A stretch of 64,000 nucleotides of DNA, taken from positions 496,001-560,000 of the forward strand of contig NZ_LT671418.1 in NCBI RefSeq assembly GCF_900130075.1. The letters run 5' to 3'. The stretch's first letter is position 1. Each line of letters opens with the position of its first letter. This stretch comes from Herminiimonas arsenitoxidans (lineage in GTDB: Bacteria > Pseudomonadota > Gammaproteobacteria > Burkholderiales > Burkholderiaceae_D). This document shows positions 8,914 to 15,004 of this stretch, in pieces. The position numbers and the translations under genes are program-made. The notes beneath the pieces are model-generated. The model worked only from the letters and a program-made list of their open reading frames with translations, was not told the origin of the DNA and made no database searches.

Positions 8914-8946
8914 TATGAAAAAAAGCCCGCGCATGCGGGCTTTTTA
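8914..8946. terminator. Intrinsic terminator after the PHP hydrolase operon
   Basis: The perfect palindrome AAAGCCCGC-GCAT-GCGGGCTTT region at 8918-8946 is flanked by A- and T-runs. It lies 36 bases beyond the stop codon of the minus-strand DUF3604 gene and can end that operon. Confidence 0.88.
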
Positions 8947-8981: not shown

Positions 8982-11387
8982 TCAATCAATAGGCGTAACA
9001 AACATTGCAGATGACCATACCTTGCTGTCGTCTTGCTGGCGGCCGGTGAAGTAGACCGGGTGATGTCCGAAGGAAGTCTTTTTCAATTCGACTTCCAGTT
9101 CACCTTGTACCGTGACGGGTAGGGCTTGCTCGGTCAAACGTTCCAATGCGAGGAACAGTTCTGTTCCACCCAGCTCTTGCCTGAGAGCACCTTCCTGTAG
9201 TAAGGACGCGCCGCTGATCTCCCATTGGAAGGTCGGTACATGCTTGAATGGATTCGGCTGCAATGGATCACCGACCTTGATGTAGCTGTCTATCGTTCCT
9301 TCTATGCGTATCGTGCAGTTCTGCAGATTGGTGATGTCGATATCTATACTGTCGGCATCGCCATACGTGTCGCTACGGAATACGATGTCAGTCGTGCCTT
9401 CGCGCCAGCAGTTTTCTTCACCATGTTCAAAGCCATGTGACTGGAAGCGATTGATGGTGCCATTCAGTATCGTGATGCGACCACGCCATGAAGCCCAGCG
9501 ATAACGATCAGGTACGCGTGCGCCACCCCAGCGCAAACGTATCAGTCGATCCGAGTAGCCCAGCTCTTCATGCAGATTACGTTTCCAGATCAGCCCCGTG
9601 TGATCATAAGCAGCAATTTCATCCCAGCCTGCGCTACCGAGGAAGTTGTAGTTGAGCTTTAGCGGACCAGAGTGCGTAAACTCATCGCCCTGAATATGTT
9701 GGCCGGCGTTAACTAGCAAAGCAGTATGTTCGCCGGTGGTGGCCCAGGTATGACGTGCGCGCAGTGCGCGTCCTATGCTGCGTCTGTCCAGTGATTCGGC
9801 GATGACGCCTGTCAATCCGCCGTGTACGCCGAATACTTGTGTGCCTGGAGGTCCGCCACCCGGGCGACCGCGATGTTCGTCACCGCTGGCGGCAACGCCG
9901 ATGCGGTAACCGCGTGTGATGACATCTTGATAGAGCCAGCCGAAGTGACCCCAGCTTGATGCGATCTCGACCAGGCGTTCCAGTTCCGGATGATGCCAGT
10001 CAGGAATGTAGCGACGGCCACCGACGTGCGGCATGATCAGATGTTGCTCGGGATCGTCGATGTAGGCCGCCCACAGTTCTTCCACCGGCCAGCGTCCGGT
10101 TTCGACTGCGGAACCCTTCATGTCTTCATTCCACAGGAAGGTGCGATTGTGTTCGCCGCGTGCGTTGTACGGGAAGTCAGGGGCAGCATCGCCGAGGAAG
10201 ACTACATTGTGGTCGCCACCTGCAGTCGAGCTGCCGCACCATTCCTGCACTGGATAGCAAACAAAATGTCCGGGCTTGTTGAATTCTTCTACGGTATCTA
10301 CACCGAGTTGCCAGTTTTCATCAGTAATCTGGAAGTCGTTGGCGGTGTAGCCGAGCACATCGATGCCGCCGATGTCACGCGCATAAGCAGCGTTATAGGC
10401 TGGGCTATTGGTACCAACGGTGTCGCTGGCGTGTACGTGCAGGTCGGCATAGAAGGAACGTGGTGCCGGGAAGCGGTCGTCTATGCTCAAGTGTGCGATT
10501 GCTGGACGCATATACAAGTGTTCAGGTAATTCTGCGACCAGCCGCAGGTCGCCGCGATCACTCGGCAGGTCGTCGATACCTATGCTGGCCCAGCCTGTGT
10601 CTGGTAAAGCGTGTGTTTTTTCATAGACCACTGCATCGCCGGAATAGGCGCGCAGCAAAAGACTACCTGCTTGTGCATGGCAAGCGTTGCCCCAACGATC
10701 TTGCAGTGAAAAGCGGAAAGGTGCAGCCTGTCCGCTGCGTACAAAGCGCGGACCAGCGATCAGCAAGCGTGCCGCTGCACCGGGTGCCATGTCGATCACG
10801 ATGTCACCCGGGACAGCAGCGAAGCGCGAAGTGCCGAGTGGATCGACGTAGCAACGGAAACGGAAACGGTCTTCAGTAAAAGTCTGTACACGCGTGCCCG
10901 GACCGCCACCGCGTCTGTCGCCTATGCGCAGGATGATGTGGTCGCCGGCATTCAGATAGCCATCGACGACGTCGACGATGATGGCTTTCTGAAATGGGCG
11001 CTCATGGCCCTTTTGATCGAAGCGTACCGATAAGGATTGTACGGTCGCCGGACTTTGCCCCGGCACCAGTTTGCCGGACTGATATTCGGCGCTGATGTAA
11101 TTGGCGGCGGTCGGATCGCTGGTCTGGAACAAGGCCCAGTCCGAATAAAACTTGAAGGTAGCCTTGAACCAGCCGCCATCGGCGAGACCTGCTGCACCGA
11201 CTTCATAGTCGATGACGATTTCATTCCAGCTACCGGTTTCCAGTCGATTGACGTTGCAGCTGACACTGCCGACGAAAGGTAGTTTTTTGTTTTGTACATA
11301 CAAGCCTTCAGGCGCAAAGTGCGGTCCCAGCTTGCTACGCAAGGTTTGATATTGCTGCGAGAGATCGAGTGGATTACTTTTGCTCAT
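8982..11387 (-). CDS. PHP-like DUF3604 metallohydrolase
   Basis: This 801-residue cytosolic protein has no signal peptide. Residues 1-300 are beta-rich with an immunoglobulin-like look. A PHP/amidohydrolase-like domain follows, with candidate metal ligands in ADLHVHASD (H317, H319), GGDHN (H393), MPHVGG (H454) and SGDEH (D503, H505). Residues after 600 form a second beta-rich domain. This fits DUF3604 proteins, proposed metal-dependent hydrolases with no firmly assigned substrate. It is the last gene of an operon with a sulfonate/taurine/nitrate-type ABC importer and is divergent from a GntR regulator. The inferred role is intracellular hydrolysis of the imported compound. The reaction itself cannot be read from the sequence. 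Confidence 0.72.
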   Translation of the reverse strand: MSKSNPLDLSQQYQTLRSKLGPHFAPEGLYVQNKKLPFVGSVSCNVNRLETGSWNEIVIDYEVGAAGLADGGWFKATFKFYSDWALFQTSDPTAANYISAEYQSGKLVPGQSPATVQSLSVRFDQKGHERPFQKAIIVDVVDGYLNAGDHIILRIGDRRGGGPGTRVQTFTEDRFRFRCYVDPLGTSRFAAVPGDIVIDMAPGAAARLLIAGPRFVRSGQAAPFRFSLQDRWGNACHAQAGSLLLRAYSGDAVVYEKTHALPDTGWASIGIDDLPSDRGDLRLVAELPEHLYMRPAIAHLSIDDRFPAPRSFYADLHVHASDTVGTNSPAYNAAYARDIGGIDVLGYTANDFQITDENWQLGVDTVEEFNKPGHFVCYPVQEWCGSSTAGGDHNVVFLGDAAPDFPYNARGEHNRTFLWNEDMKGSAVETGRWPVEELWAAYIDDPEQHLIMPHVGGRRYIPDWHHPELERLVEIASSWGHFGWLYQDVITRGYRIGVAASGDEHRGRPGGGPPGTQVFGVHGGLTGVIAESLDRRSIGRALRARHTWATTGEHTALLVNAGQHIQGDEFTHSGPLKLNYNFLGSAGWDEIAAYDHTGLIWKRNLHEELGYSDRLIRLRWGGARVPDRYRWASWRGRITILNGTINRFQSHGFEHGEENCWREGTTDIVFRSDTYGDADSIDIDITNLQNCTIRIEGTIDSYIKVGDPLQPNPFKHVPTFQWEISGASLLQEGALRQELGGTELFLALERLTEQALPVTVQGELEVELKKTSFGHHPVYFTGRQQDDSKVWSSAMFVTPID

Positions 11388-11434
11388 GATATTTCCTGAT
11401 TTCTATTAATTGCTATTCGGAGATCCAGTGCCGC

Positions 11435-12190
11435 TTAGTGACTGCGCCAGCGTTGATAGCGGCGTTCTATGCGTCGGAAGACCAGACTTTCGGCCAGCCA
11501 TGCGATGAGGCCGATCAGTACGATGCCGAGCAATACCTGGCTGGCATTGCCGATCTGTCCGCCGGTGGAAACCATCCAACCTATGCCGTGTGATGCGCCT
11601 ATCATTTCCGCCGCTACCAGTGCGCGCCAGGCCTGACTGAAGCCGACGCGTAGCGCGGTAGTGAAGGCGGGCAGGGTGGCGGGGAAATAGACGTGCACCA
11701 GCAACTGGATACGATTTGCGCCGAGAATGCGTGCGGCGCGTACTTCACCACCGCGTATCGCCTGCACACCATCCTGTATCGCCAGCGTCATCGGGCATAC
11801 GGCGGCGATGAAGATGACGACGATGATGGATAGATAACCGATGCCGAAGATGATCATGGTCAGCGGTGCCCACGCAATCGGCGGGATCGCCATGAACAGG
11901 CCATTCAACGGCGTGATGAAATCGCGCACATTGCGTGAGATGCCGGCCGCAGTACCGACGATGACGGCGACCACGATGGCCGCACCGAAGCCGCCCAGCT
12001 CTTCCAGCAAACTCGCGCCGAGGTGTGCCCACAGCTTGCCGCTTTCCAGCCAGCGCCATCCTTCCTGTGCCACTTCCCATGGTTGCGGCAAGATGTAGGA
12101 CGGGAAGCGGCTGGCTGCTAGACTCCACGCTAGGATGAGTGCAGGTAAGGCAGCCCAGCCCCACGACGGTTTTAAACCCAATATACGCAT
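11435..12190 (-). CDS. ABC transporter permease, SsuC/TauC type
   Basis: The inner membrane permease has 251 residues and about six membrane segments. The EAA-type loop that contacts the ATPase is seen around AARILGANRIQLLVHVYFPATLP. It belongs to the nitrate/sulfonate/taurine family together with the next two genes. It starts 8 bases after the binding protein gene and is translated with it. The N-terminal segment WGWAALPALILAWSLAASRF is hydrophobic. The substrate is not defined by the permease sequence. Confidence 0.88.
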   Translation of the reverse strand: MRILGLKPSWGWAALPALILAWSLAASRFPSYILPQPWEVAQEGWRWLESGKLWAHLGASLLEELGGFGAAIVVAVIVGTAAGISRNVRDFITPLNGLFMAIPPIAWAPLTMIIFGIGYLSIIVVIFIAAVCPMTLAIQDGVQAIRGGEVRAARILGANRIQLLVHVYFPATLPAFTTALRVGFSQAWRALVAAEMIGASHGIGWMVSTGGQIGNASQVLLGIVLIGLIAWLAESLVFRRIERRYQRWRSH

Positions 12191-12198
12191 GCGCGTCC

Positions 12199-13212
12199 TT
12201 AGCGTTTGGCTGGCGCTTTTTCAGCGCGCTGTTGCCATGTGGTGTCGATGATTTCCGTTGCGCGCAAATCCTTGTTCAGGAAGCCGAGCGCACGCGAGTA
12301 GTTCATCAATTGCTGGATGAACTGCACATCGTTTTGCTGGATGCGATCGGACCAGCCTATGCGTTTACGCGCTTCTTTGACGACTTCGATCGGTTTGATT
12401 TCACGACCATCGACAGTTTTGACGGTTGGGATTTCGAAGGCTTCGGCGATGATCTGGTTCGCTTCATCAGGATGCTTGTTCAGGAAGTCGATGGCACGAC
12501 GATGCGCGCGCAGGACTTTGACGATGTCATCAGGACGTTGCGCCAGCGTACGCGGCATTGCCATCACGATGTACCAAGGGTATTGCGGGATAGCCTTGTT
12601 AATGTCGAGAACCAGGCGAGTGTTACCACGCAGCAGTGCAGTGGCGATGAATGGTTCCCACGTGAAGGCGGCATCGACCAGGTTGCGATCAAGTGCCGCA
12701 GGCATATTCCCGGCGGGCATATTAACGATGGTAGTGTCACGGTCAGGTTCGAGGCCTGCCGCTTCCTTCAAAACGTAGCCGCGCAACAAGACATCCATAC
12801 CGCTGCCTTTGGCGACACCGGCTATCTTCTTGCCCTTGAGGTCGGCGACTGTGCGGATAGAACTGTTTGCCTGTGTAATCACTGCAGCCTGGCCGTAATT
12901 GACTTTGGCCAGGATGCGGCTGTTGAGGCCGCGTGCATACCATTGGAATACTGGCGGCGCGCCTATGTATGCCATATCTAGGTCGCCGGCTGACAAAGCT
13001 TGTTGCAGGATGGGGCCGTCGCCGAAGGATTTGATTTCGACATTGACGCCTTCTTCCTTGAAGTAGCCTTTGCGATCTGCAATCACTGCGGGTGCATTGG
13101 CCATCGCGTAGACCCAGCCGATGCGGATAGGTTTTTCCTGCGCTTGCGCGGTAGCGGCGCTGACCGATGCCAGCGCTAGTGAGAGTGTTATCAGCAGCTT
13201 TACAGGTTTCAT
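12199..13212 (-). CDS. ABC transporter substrate-binding protein, SsuA/TauA type
   Basis: The 337-residue periplasmic binding protein has a cleavable signal peptide (MKPVKLLITLSLALASVSAA, cut near AQAQE). The mature start KPIRIGWVYAMANAPAVIADRKGYF is typical of aliphatic sulfonate, taurine and nitrate binding proteins. It continues with the two-lobe pattern GDGPILQQALSAGDLDMAYIGAPP. The start codon overlaps the ATPase stop (ATGA), indicating translational coupling. The ligand is unknown; the gene partner at 8982 suggests a compound that needs hydrolysis after uptake. Confidence 0.88.
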   Translation of the reverse strand: MKPVKLLITLSLALASVSAATAQAQEKPIRIGWVYAMANAPAVIADRKGYFKEEGVNVEIKSFGDGPILQQALSAGDLDMAYIGAPPVFQWYARGLNSRILAKVNYGQAAVITQANSSIRTVADLKGKKIAGVAKGSGMDVLLRGYVLKEAAGLEPDRDTTIVNMPAGNMPAALDRNLVDAAFTWEPFIATALLRGNTRLVLDINKAIPQYPWYIVMAMPRTLAQRPDDIVKVLRAHRRAIDFLNKHPDEANQIIAEAFEIPTVKTVDGREIKPIEVVKEARKRIGWSDRIQQNDVQFIQQLMNYSRALGFLNKDLRATEIIDTTWQQRAEKAPAKR

Positions 13213-14042
13213 AGCGTACTTTCAGAAAGAAGTGGGAAGGAGTGCGCGTCTTCAACTGCAACGGCGTTCGGGAAATCTGCAGTGGAAATGGTGTCCATCA
13301 GGCTGCTGCTGTATTCATGGAATTGCGGCAGGCGTCGCGTCTCGCGATGGATGCGTGGGCGTGGCAAGTCGATAGAGAAGCTGTGCCTCACGCCTTGCGG
13401 TGCCTTGCCAAGCACGACTACGCGATCAGCGAGGAAGACTGCTTCGTCGATGTCATGCGTAATGAAGACCACGGTTTGTTTGAGCGAAGACCAGAGCCGC
13501 AGCAATTCTTCGTTCATGCTTTGGCGCGAGATGGCATCCAAGGCGGCGAAGGGTTCATCCATCAACAGCAATGTCGGTTCCATCGCTAAGGTGCGCGCCA
13601 GCGAGATGCGTTGCTGCATGCCGCCTGACAGCTGATGCGGCAGGCGCTGTGCGGCATCTGCCAGGCCAACCAGTGCCAGCGCTTCACGCGCTTTCTGTTC
13701 ACGTTCGATACGGGTGACGTCGGCTCGCATACGCAAACCAAAAGCTACATTGTCGAGAGCATTCAGCCATGGGAAGAGTTGCGGCGACTGGAATACATAG
13801 CCGAGTTCCTGCATCTCTGGCCGAGCCTTGTGTTCATTGACCTGGATGCTGCCTCTCTGCGGCTGCAGGAAACCCGACAGCAGGTTGAGCAAGGTGCTTT
13901 TACCGCAACCAGACGGGCCGAGCAGGGCGAGGAATTCGCCGGGCTTTGCTTCTATCGAGAAGTCGCGGAATACCGTCTGCCCGTTTTCATAGGCAAAGTT
14001 GATATGGTCGACTCGAAGATGAGCCATCTGTTTCTCGTACAT
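13209..14042 (-). CDS. ABC transporter ATP-binding protein, SsuB/TauB type
   Basis: The 277-residue ATPase energises the importer. It has Walker A GPSGCGKST near residue 43, the Q-loop in YVFQSPQLFPWLNALDNVAFGL, the signature LSGGMQQRISLARTLA, Walker B LLLMDEPFAALD and switch His in VFITHDIDEA. These are the hallmarks of nitrate/sulfonate/taurine ATPases. A start at the sixth codon (MAHLRVDHINF) is also possible. This is the first gene of the operon, facing the GntR gene across a 215-bp region with a 12-bp palindrome. Confidence 0.9.
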   Translation of the reverse strand: MYEKQMAHLRVDHINFAYENGQTVFRDFSIEAKPGEFLALLGPSGCGKSTLLNLLSGFLQPQRGSIQVNEHKARPEMQELGYVFQSPQLFPWLNALDNVAFGLRMRADVTRIEREQKAREALALVGLADAAQRLPHQLSGGMQQRISLARTLAMEPTLLLMDEPFAALDAISRQSMNEELLRLWSSLKQTVVFITHDIDEAVFLADRVVVLGKAPQGVRHSFSIDLPRPRIHRETRRLPQFHEYSSSLMDTISTADFPNAVAVEDAHSFPLLSESTL

Positions 14043-14123
14043 GACTGGTATCCGTTGAACAATGAGGAATAGCCCGGTGTAAAAAATGCATCACAAGCAT
14101 GCTGCTTGTCAGGATTTTTGTCA

Positions 14124-14135
14124 TAATACGTATTA
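14124..14135. promoter_or_regulatory. Candidate GntR/HutC operator
   Basis: The perfect 12-bp palindrome TAATACGTATTA lies between the divergent ABC-transporter operon and the GntR gene. HutC-type regulators bind short palindromes containing GT-TA-AC elements, so this is the natural operator candidate. This is inferred from position and symmetry only. Confidence 0.5.
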
Positions 14136-14257
14136 ATACAAGTTAGGCGAACGAAGACTTTTGCATATCCTTATTCGTTTTCTTTTTTGTCAGGCAGCGA
14201 TCTATCGTGAATAATCGCTATTCCTTTACTACTAACAATGAATATTGAGTCAACCGC

Positions 14258-15004
14258 ATGCATGCCAGTGATACTTTGATCCGTAAGAACGTCACCTCGA
14301 TGTATGAGCAAATCGCTGCGCAATTGCGTGAAGAGGTGCTGGGAGGTGCGTTTGAGCCATCCGGCAAGCTGCCATCGGAAGCAGCGCTGGTAGAACGCTT
14401 CGGCGTCAGCCGCGTCACCGTGCGCTTGGCATTGGGACGACTGGAAGAAGAGAGTGTTGTCGAGCGTAAGCAGGGCAAAGGTACGTATGCGGCTGGCAAG
14501 CAGGTGCGGCATGCACTGGATGCCTTGCGCAGCTTTCATGATTCGCTATTGATGCAAGGCTTGAAGCCAAAGATGAAATTGCTGGCGCTGGACCTGGTGC
14601 CGGTGCCGGAACAATTAACGGAGCGCTTTGGCAAGAAGGTGAAGGAATGTACCTTTCTGCAGCGCCTGCATCTGGTCGACGATGAGCCGATTGCCGTTGG
14701 CGCCAGTTATTTGCCGGCACCAGTTGCTGCGATGGATTGGAATGAGGCAGAGCGTCAGCCTAACTACGCGATCCTCAAGAGTCTCGATGGGCGCGGTGTA
14801 GCGCGCGCAGACGTGTCGATAGGTGCGCAATTGGCGGATCGCGAACTGGGCAAGCTCTTGAAAGTGAAGACCGGCAGCGCCGTGTTGGTGATGACACGGA
14901 CATCCACATCGGTCAGCGGCGCATGCTGTGATTACTCGGTCTTCTATATACGGCCTGAACGTTACGAATTCGTCGCGAGTTGTAGCTTTTCTTCTGCAGT
15001 CTGA
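14258..15004 (+). CDS. GntR family regulator, HutC subfamily (UTRA domain)
   Basis: The 248-residue regulator has an N-terminal winged helix (YEQIAAQLREEVLGGAF, LPSEAALVERFGVSRVTVRLAL) and a UTRA effector domain from about 85 to 240 of the HutC type. Members sense the pathway substrate or an intermediate. It is transcribed away from the ABC importer/DUF3604 operon and is the likely repressor of it. No clear ribosome site precedes the ATG, so the start is somewhat uncertain; M15 is an alternative. Confidence 0.88.
   Translation: MHASDTLIRKNVTSMYEQIAAQLREEVLGGAFEPSGKLPSEAALVERFGVSRVTVRLALGRLEEESVVERKQGKGTYAAGKQVRHALDALRSFHDSLLMQGLKPKMKLLALDLVPVPEQLTERFGKKVKECTFLQRLHLVDDEPIAVGASYLPAPVAAMDWNEAERQPNYAILKSLDGRGVARADVSIGAQLADRELGKLLKVKTGSAVLVMTRTSTSVSGACCDYSVFYIRPERYEFVASCSFSSAV

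What the first reader, a model, noticed from the sequence alone, without database searches (positions are those of the whole stretch)
8982..15004. Uncharacterised import-and-hydrolyse pathway: DUF3604 hydrolase, TauABC-like transporter and HutC regulator
A GntR/HutC regulator is divergent from an operon ATPase-binding protein-permease-DUF3604. The transporter belongs to the sulfonate/taurine/nitrate class, but no monooxygenase (ssuD, tauD) is present; instead there is an 801-residue PHP-like metallohydrolase with full candidate metal ligands (H317, H319, H393, H454, D503, H505). This points to a substrate that is imported intact and cleaved hydrolytically in the cytosol. The sequence shows the genes and motifs; the pathway is inference.
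Basis: partly seen in the sequence, partly recalled or inferred. Interest (0 to 1): 0.75.

Follow-up and report, generated by a model that had tools for sequence, protein, structure and literature searches.

The report
Import-coupled hydrolase operon, unknown substrate
A small bacterial gene set pairs a dedicated nutrient importer and its own on/off switch with an unstudied enzyme that probably needs metal; relatives keep the enzyme but swap the importer between three unrelated kinds, which points to a real uptake-and-cut pathway for a small acidic compound that is not yet identified.

Summary

Of 74 distinct relatives (at least 48% identity), 66 carry an importer within 5.5 kb, of three unrelated families: Tau/Ssu-type ABC (26), DASS sodium-anion symporter (33) or TctCBA (7). 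Five of the other eight show a different or partial transporter.

A palindrome, TAATACGTATTA, lies between regulator and operon in 16 of 26 distinct divergent pairs, under ABC and DASS operons alike. It occurs once in each of the nine genomes or records (of 21) that hold it, always at this operon. The module looks self-contained; its substrate is probably a small organic anion.

Sulfite-handling genes lie beside it in several lineages, suggesting an organosulfonate. That test was post hoc, and a prospective set of 17 loci (16 new) gave none. Sulfur is a lead, not a result. Confidence: import-coupled hydrolase 0.75; sulfite-releasing 0.35.

The parts
8982..11387 (-). PHP-fold DUF3604 protein, 801 aa, probable metallohydrolase; no signal peptide visible by eye; last gene of the operon
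11435..12190 (-). ABC permease, Tau/Ssu/nitrate class
   Evidence: PF00528; best NCBIfam TauC 150 bits, below its cut-off 342
12199..13212 (-). periplasmic binding protein, SsuA subfamily, with a signal-peptide-like N-terminus by eye
   Evidence: TIGR01728 167.8 bits, cut-off 163.5; nearest solved chain SsuA 2x26, E 1.8e-13
13209..14042 (-). ABC ATPase, Tau/nitrate class; first gene of the operon
   Evidence: PF00005; TauB-like 228.6 bits, below cut-off 357
14258..15004 (+). GntR/UTRA regulator, divergent
   Evidence: PF00392 and PF07702; HutC equivalog not met (105 of 220 bits)
14118..14141 (.). putative operator: 24-bp inverted repeat TTGTNNTAATACGTATTANNACAA with the perfect 12-bp core TAATACGTATTA at 14124-14135
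   Evidence: core exact in 17 of 27 GntR-divergent intergenic regions (16 of 26 distinct), 0 in 200 shuffled sets; only exact site in the whole genome G000; window scan; protein binding not tested
8920..8945 (.). candidate intrinsic terminator (11-bp stem) 36 bp after the hydrolase stop codon; the scan reports it on the + strand, the stem itself is symmetric
   Evidence: 1 found, 0.2 expected in shuffles

Best explanation
The locus is a self-contained uptake-and-cleave module for one small organic anion. The binding protein and ABC importer bring the compound intact into the cytosol (inferred from family). There the DUF3604 protein, a PHP-fold protein with N-terminal beta-sandwich domains, hydrolyses it with bound metal (fold and ligand motifs shown, metal and reaction inferred). 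The divergent GntR/UTRA protein represses the operon from the TAATACGTATTA palindrome until the compound or its product appears (site conservation shown; binding, ligand and sign of control inferred). In relatives the importer is replaced by a DASS sodium-anion symporter or a TctCBA transporter. The compound should therefore suit Tau/Ssu-type ABC, DASS and TTT importers alike, which fits a carboxylate, sulfonate or sulfo-carboxylate. The confidence given here (0.75) is for this import-coupled module. My most likely specific reading within it is an organosulfonate whose breakdown gives sulfite; I put that part at 0.35.
For: Importer census: of 74 distinct loci, 26 Tau/Ssu-type ABC, 33 DASS, 7 TctCBA, 8 none or unclear. 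Of the 8, two have other permease and ATPase genes directly downstream (L023, L037), two a divergent DASS paralogue (L020, L025), one an ABC ATPase at a contig end (L124), one is cut by a contig end (L121), and two Azospirillum loci have only GntR and the enzyme. Operator core exact in 17 of 27 intergenic regions (16 of 26 distinct) under ABC and DASS operons alike, and exactly once in each of the 9 of 21 genomes or records that hold it; the pattern read backwards, as control, was found in one genome only. PHP fold with the DxHxH, E, H and DxH motifs intact. For sulfur: TauE/SafE next gene downstream on the same strand in Janthinobacterium; a weakly QmoC-like gene, then AprB and AprA, on the same strand downstream in a Hyphomicrobiaceae locus; a DASS gene beside AprA/AprB-like genes in L024; SoxC plus cytochrome c in Methylosinus; TauE within 7 kb in 6 of 38 records against 0.69 expected.
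Against: I found no biochemistry for this subfamily in the papers searched. The sulfur families were picked after seeing neighbours. The only prospective set (17 loci from the class search, 16 of them new because L130 repeats L028) had 0 hits to the 14-marker set and none to a TauE model; pooled, with assumed copy numbers, the TauE excess weakens to P about 0.001 and aprA to 0.027. The sulfite-oxidase family PF03404 lies beside the enzyme in 1 of 18 records only. The window has no hit to the marker set, and no sulfur gene is annotated near the Klebsiella and Pantoea copies read. Two Azospirillum loci lack any importer. The exact core is absent in 10 of 27 regions: six have 1-2 mismatches, four have none.
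Confidence: 0.75

Rival explanations
1. Same module, but the substrate holds no sulfur: a carboxylate with a carbamate, ester or amide bond, cut as CehA cuts carbamates. The product feeds general carbon and nitrogen metabolism.
For: Solved relatives of the DASS protein are dicarboxylate, citrate and SLC13A1-type carriers (names only), and most TTT systems in the table of PMC5812351 carry carboxylates (passages). The enzyme shares the PHP core and a similar histidine spacing with carbamate hydrolase CehA, whose H313, H315, H453 and H495 matter (PMC8292978, passages; compare H317, H319, H454, H505). The prospective set shows no marker-set sulfur neighbours.
Against: The binding protein passes the sulfonate subfamily model, narrowly. 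Sulfite-handling genes of several unrelated types adjoin the module in several lineages. CehA/McbA model not reached (14.6 of 80 bits).
Confidence: 0.45
2. Phosphoester or phosphonate hydrolase: a phosphorus-scavenging module, as the PHP fold was first named for phosphoesterases (recalled).
For: The best structural matches are titled predicted PHP phosphoesterases. The binding protein also matches the phosphonate-binding Pfam family, 61.9 bits.
Against: The regulator does not reach the PhnF model (107.7 of 156.8 bits). I recognised no phosphorus genes beside the operon by eye; this was not searched systematically. DASS importers are not known to me for phosphonates (recalled).
Confidence: 0.1
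3. The enzyme does not act on the imported compound; it repairs or detoxifies a metabolite, and the transporter is a neighbour by chance.
For: The two Azospirillum loci read have regulator and enzyme without importer.
Against: 66 of 74 loci have an importer within 5.5 kb, from three unrelated families, and one conserved site precedes the whole block.
Confidence: 0.06

Closest known systems
CehA / McbA carbamate hydrolases (NF038032)
   Same: shared PHP-type core (weak profile match over residues 314-578); essential histidines of CehA at nearly the same positions (PMC8292978 passages)
   Different: NF038032 not reached (14.6 of 80 bits). In the passages seen, several of those hydrolases have signal peptides, one is shown to be periplasmic, and cehA is flanked by insertion sequences (one copy by a TonB-dependent receptor); no ABC, DASS or TTT importer is mentioned there. 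This one looks cytosolic by sequence and is importer-coupled
PHP-family proteins 2anu (TM0559) and 3e38 (BVU_3505)
   Different: both entries are titled as predicted function only; 16-18% identity; their gene neighbourhood was not checked
TauABC / SsuABC sulfonate importers
   Same: class of ABC importer; SsuA subfamily model passed narrowly
   Different: taurine models and SsuC equivalog not met; no TauD or SsuD in the operon
SlcHFG (TTT) sulfolactate and TphC terephthalate importers (PMC5812351, passages)
   Same: a TctCBA-type importer takes the same place in 7 of 74 relatives
   Different: not present in the window; substrate of the relatives unknown

Membership tests
DUF3604 (PF12228) | curated gathering score 20.4 | tested here: met
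   36.9 bits in two stretches
PHP superfamily | fold of the catalytic domain | tested here: met
PHP superfamily | metal-ligand motifs (DxHxH, E, H, DxH; motif names recalled) | tested here: met
   H317, H319, E382, D392, H454, D503 and H505 in 32 of 32 sequences; H393 in 30 of 32
PHP superfamily | bound metals and hydrolase activity | not testable with these tools
   needs purified protein
CehA/McbA metallohydrolase (NF038032) | curated cut-off 80 bits | tested here: not met
   14.6 bits, E 0.016
Taurine importer TauABC | equivalog cut-offs | tested here: not met
   TauB 228.6 of 357, TauC 150.2 of 342, taurine-binding protein 49.3 of 304
SsuA subfamily (TIGR01728) | subfamily cut-off 163.5 for the binding protein | tested here: met
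   167.8 bits, a narrow pass
HutC regulator (TIGR02018) | equivalog cut-off 220 | tested here: not met
   105.1 bits; GntR and UTRA Pfam domains met
Sulfite-releasing sulfonate pathway | a sulfite-disposal gene in or beside the operon | tested here: inconclusive
   present in several lineages; no marker hit in 17 of 17 loci of the prospective set nor in the window
Sulfite-releasing sulfonate pathway | sulfite released from a sulfonate by the enzyme | not testable with these tools
   needs an assay

The most novel reading that the evidence does not exclude
The DUF3604 enzyme is a PHP-fold, metal-dependent desulfonating hydrolase. It frees sulfite from an imported sulfonate or sulfo-carboxylate in one step, without oxygen, flavin, thiamine or radical cofactor. 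Heterotrophs use it to scavenge sulfur under a GntR switch, and aprA-bearing (probably sulfur-oxidising) bacteria use it to feed sulfite to APS reductase or Soe under a CRP/FNR switch.
Probability: 0.2. Interest if true: 0.85.

Novelty: new variant of a known kind. Interest (0 to 1): 0.52.

Why it matters
DUF3604 has almost no literature in the library held (one paper contains the word). A candidate dedicated operator, a dedicated importer and a single enzyme make this one of the simplest places to find what such an enzyme does: the ligand of the binding protein should be its substrate. Three unrelated importers in front of one enzyme also narrow the chemistry. If sulfite is the product, it would be a desulfonation route unlike the oxygenases, lyases and thiamine enzymes that I know of (recalled), present in soil and plant-associated bacteria, on plasmids, and in aprA-bearing bacteria.

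Tried and rejected
Horizontal acquisition by composition: operon GC 0.56 against 0.515 for the window, but third-position GC 0.58-0.70 against a median of 0.59 for long ORFs; not claimed. The patchy distribution (2 of 13 listed genomes of the genus, 5 of 245 of the family at about 50% identity or more) still leaves transfer open.

Sequence search of solved structures with the enzyme or its profile: no hit. The first Foldseek list was dominated by beta-sandwich proteins with overall TM-scores of 0.18 or less (query-normalised) and was not used; the re-alignment gave the PHP match.

Longest-ORF gene calling failed in high-GC loci and was replaced by codon-usage scoring; it failed again for L092, which was not used for neighbours. 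Listings were cut, so genes named by eye come from the parts shown.

AprA co-occurrence: over the cut-off in 20 of 33 genomes, that is 20 of 22 handles with CRP or PBP-like genes (18 of 20 after removing two genomes that appear twice with identical coordinates) and 0 of 11 without. Background in the order is 55 of 250. AprA is also present in HYD-negative members of one such family (G677, G719, G791), so this is a lineage trait and not proof of a joint pathway. My Fisher test used an approximate table and is not relied on.

TauE in Rugamonas L003/L005 sits in what looks like a sulfide-detoxification block (recalled type) with its own direction, so it is weak support, though G144 (the L005 genome) is one of the 6 of 38. 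In the Janthinobacterium locus L008 a gene that looks by eye like an IS110 transposase lies between permease and hydrolase. The APS-reductase-like proteins of L024 are mixed: alpha 378 of 641.75 by aprA but 584.5 of 557 by NF005331, beta 93.6 of 135.65. The QmoC-like protein of L031 is far below its cut-off (38.7 of 300) and has no Pfam hit. Poisson counts assume random placement; families were chosen post hoc; match lists were cut, so near matches are lower bounds; the pooled values use assumed copy numbers for the 17 loci. In the prospective loci I noticed by eye a DsrE-like (L134), a rhodanese-like (L135) and a metE-like gene (L128); they are outside the marker set and not counted. Several of the 17 loci are cut by contig ends.

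Distant loci L084-L087, L089 and L090 (28-37% identity) were fetched but their importers were not classified.

GntR operator of the GTNTAGAC type (recalled for HutC/PhnF): not found; plain TAGAC in 5 of 27 only.

Literature: DUF3604; PHP domain, sulfonate, desulfonation: 15 of 198 listed; listings only, except passages of PMC8292978 and PMC5812351.
Full report
OBSERVATION. The first two operon genes overlap by 4 bp and the other gaps are 8 and 47 bp. A candidate terminator follows the last gene (8920-8945), so the operon seems to end with the hydrolase.

THE IMPORTER IS SWAPPED, THE ENZYME STAYS. I collected relatives from genome contigs (34 loci), plasmids (56 records at E 1e-5 and 60 at E 1; 15 stretches read), and genome searches in family, phylum, order and class. 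Of 80 loci with at least 48% identity to the window enzyme, 74 are distinct. Within 5.5 kb, 26 have the Tau/Ssu-type ABC importer, 33 a DASS sodium-anion symporter (PF00939 212-217 bits and TIGR00785 208-210 of 198.6 on two examples), 7 a TctCBA importer, and 8 were none or unclear. Of these 8, L023 and L037 carry another permease and ATPase downstream, L020 and L025 a divergent DASS paralogue, L124 (with an ABC ATPase) and L121 are cut by contig ends, and the two Azospirillum loci lack an importer. Relatives at 28-33% identity also have importer genes beside or near them: ABC in Agrobacterium vitis, TctCBA in Pseudosulfitobacter and Sulfitobacter, and an oligopeptide-type ABC one gene away in Chelativorans; six other distant loci were not classified. 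Non-homologous importers in front of one enzyme are strong evidence that the enzyme acts on what is imported. The chemistry common to the three classes is a small organic anion: solved relatives of the DASS protein are dicarboxylate, citrate and SLC13A1-type carriers (names only; SLC13A1 is recalled as a sulfate carrier), TTT systems include citrate, terephthalate and sulfolactate (PMC5812351 passages), and the binding protein passes the SsuA sulfonate subfamily narrowly.

ONE SWITCH, ONE SITE. The intergenic region holds a perfect palindrome TAATACGTATTA (14124-14135) inside the 24-bp repeat TTGTNNTAATACGTATTANNACAA. It is exact in 17 of 27 GntR-divergent intergenic regions; L004 and L091 are the same locus, so 16 of 26 distinct. 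These include ABC-type operons (window, L004, L007, L027, L038, L040, L073) and DASS-type operons (Burkholderia, Paraburkholderia). Six more have 1-2 mismatches; L006 (39 bp only), L039, L041 and L042 have none. None of 200 shuffled sets contained it. In a search of 21 genomes or records the exact core occurred in 9, once in each, and each place lies at this operon; the pattern read backwards was found once in all. I read this as a dedicated operator with a single-site regulon in those genomes: the importer and the enzyme are probably all that this regulator controls there. Binding itself is not shown.

TWO REGULATORY VERSIONS. In the census 30 loci have the GntR gene: 18 with ABC, 10 with DASS and the two Azospirillum loci. 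In 33 others the gene beside the operon is a CRP/FNR-type regulator (by eye) and/or a binding-protein-like gene without a visible signal peptide (PF13531 on one example): 19 DASS, 7 TTT, 4 ABC, 3 unclear. Eleven had neither within reach. The CRP version lives in genomes with dissimilatory APS reductase: aprA over cut-off in 20 of 22 handles (18 of 20 distinct genomes) against 0 of 11 for the rest, with 55 of 250 in the order as background. It is a lineage trait, since enzyme-negative members of one family also have aprA.

THE SULFUR LEAD. Several unrelated sulfite-handling systems adjoin the module: a TauE/SafE sulfite exporter as the next gene downstream on the same strand in Janthinobacterium (open frame 53 bp and called start about 190 bp after the hydrolase; PF01925 111 bits); a weakly QmoC-like gene, AprB and AprA in the same direction after the enzyme in a Hyphomicrobiaceae locus (AprA 982 of 641.75, AprB 190 of 135.65, QmoC 38.7 of 300 bits); DASS next to AprA/AprB/HdrA-like genes in L024, on the strand opposite to the enzyme; a molybdopterin enzyme with FeS and DmsC-type subunits in L035, with close relatives in L029 and L036 (likeness to SoeABC recalled); SoxC and cytochrome c in Methylosinus; sfnB, sfnG and msuE in Rhizobium etli. 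Under random placement, TauE within 7 kb was seen in 6 of 38 records against 0.69 expected (P 8e-5; 0.004 without the lineage where I first saw it), luciferase-type monooxygenases in 6 of 20 against 1.16 (P 0.001), and aprA in 2 of 33 against 0.16 (P 0.012). Against this: the families were chosen after seeing neighbours; PF03404 lies near the enzyme in 1 of 18 records only; 17 loci from the class search (16 new), examined with the same 14 markers, gave none; the window has no marker hit and the Klebsiella and Pantoea loci read show no annotated sulfur gene. Pooled, with assumed copy numbers, TauE falls to P about 0.001 and aprA to 0.027. I therefore keep sulfur as a lead at 0.35.

VERDICT. What is added is the exchange of three importer families, a candidate operator with a single genomic site, the corrected ligand set, the PHP fold, and a testable sulfur lead with its negative control. 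What is not known is the substrate. In the library searched, the word DUF3604 occurs in one paper (listing only); this is a statement about that library alone.

Noticed in passing
L024:6399-6863; also L078, L080, L081 and L128: A 154-194 aa, secreted-looking protein lies upstream of the DASS gene in several CRP-type loci; the L024 copy has no Pfam or NCBIfam hit. Possibly a periplasmic partner of the symporter.
   Followed up: partly
L035:11360-12274 and relatives (cluster 7): A binding-protein-like protein (PF13531) without a visible signal peptide is kept beside the CRP-type version of the module; it may be a cytosolic ligand sensor.
   Followed up: partly
L012:7400-8962, L031:7311-8885: In these DASS proteins the first substrate motif (SNT in known members, recalled) seems to read ANA followed by R, hinting at a changed anion preference.
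   Followed up: no
L038, L040, L096: The complete GntR-ABC-hydrolase block sits on Klebsiella and Pantoea plasmids; the Klebsiella copy lies between two IS5 elements with IS110 genes beyond, which suggests that the module moves as a unit.
   Followed up: partly
L008:7385-8368: A gene that looks by eye like an IS110 transposase lies between permease and hydrolase in Janthinobacterium sp. CG3.
   Followed up: no
L028:11398-12117, L030:11090-11809: A class I SAM methyltransferase gene directly follows the hydrolase gene in two gammaproteobacterial loci (Pfam on the L028 copy).
   Followed up: no
window 14093-14109: A hairpin followed by T runs on both strands lies between the candidate operator and the ATPase gene, in the leader of the operon (2 found, 0.1 expected); attenuation is possible.
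   Followed up: no
L102: A haloarchaeal DUF3604 gene (28% identity) sits among phosphosulfolactate synthase, a sulfite exporter, CoA transferase and acyl-CoA dehydrogenase genes.
   Followed up: no
L035 and L036, genes about 3-6 kb upstream of the DASS gene: By eye, ectoine-biosynthesis-like genes (ectB, ectA, ectC, ectD) lie upstream of the module; not confirmed with a family search.
   Followed up: no
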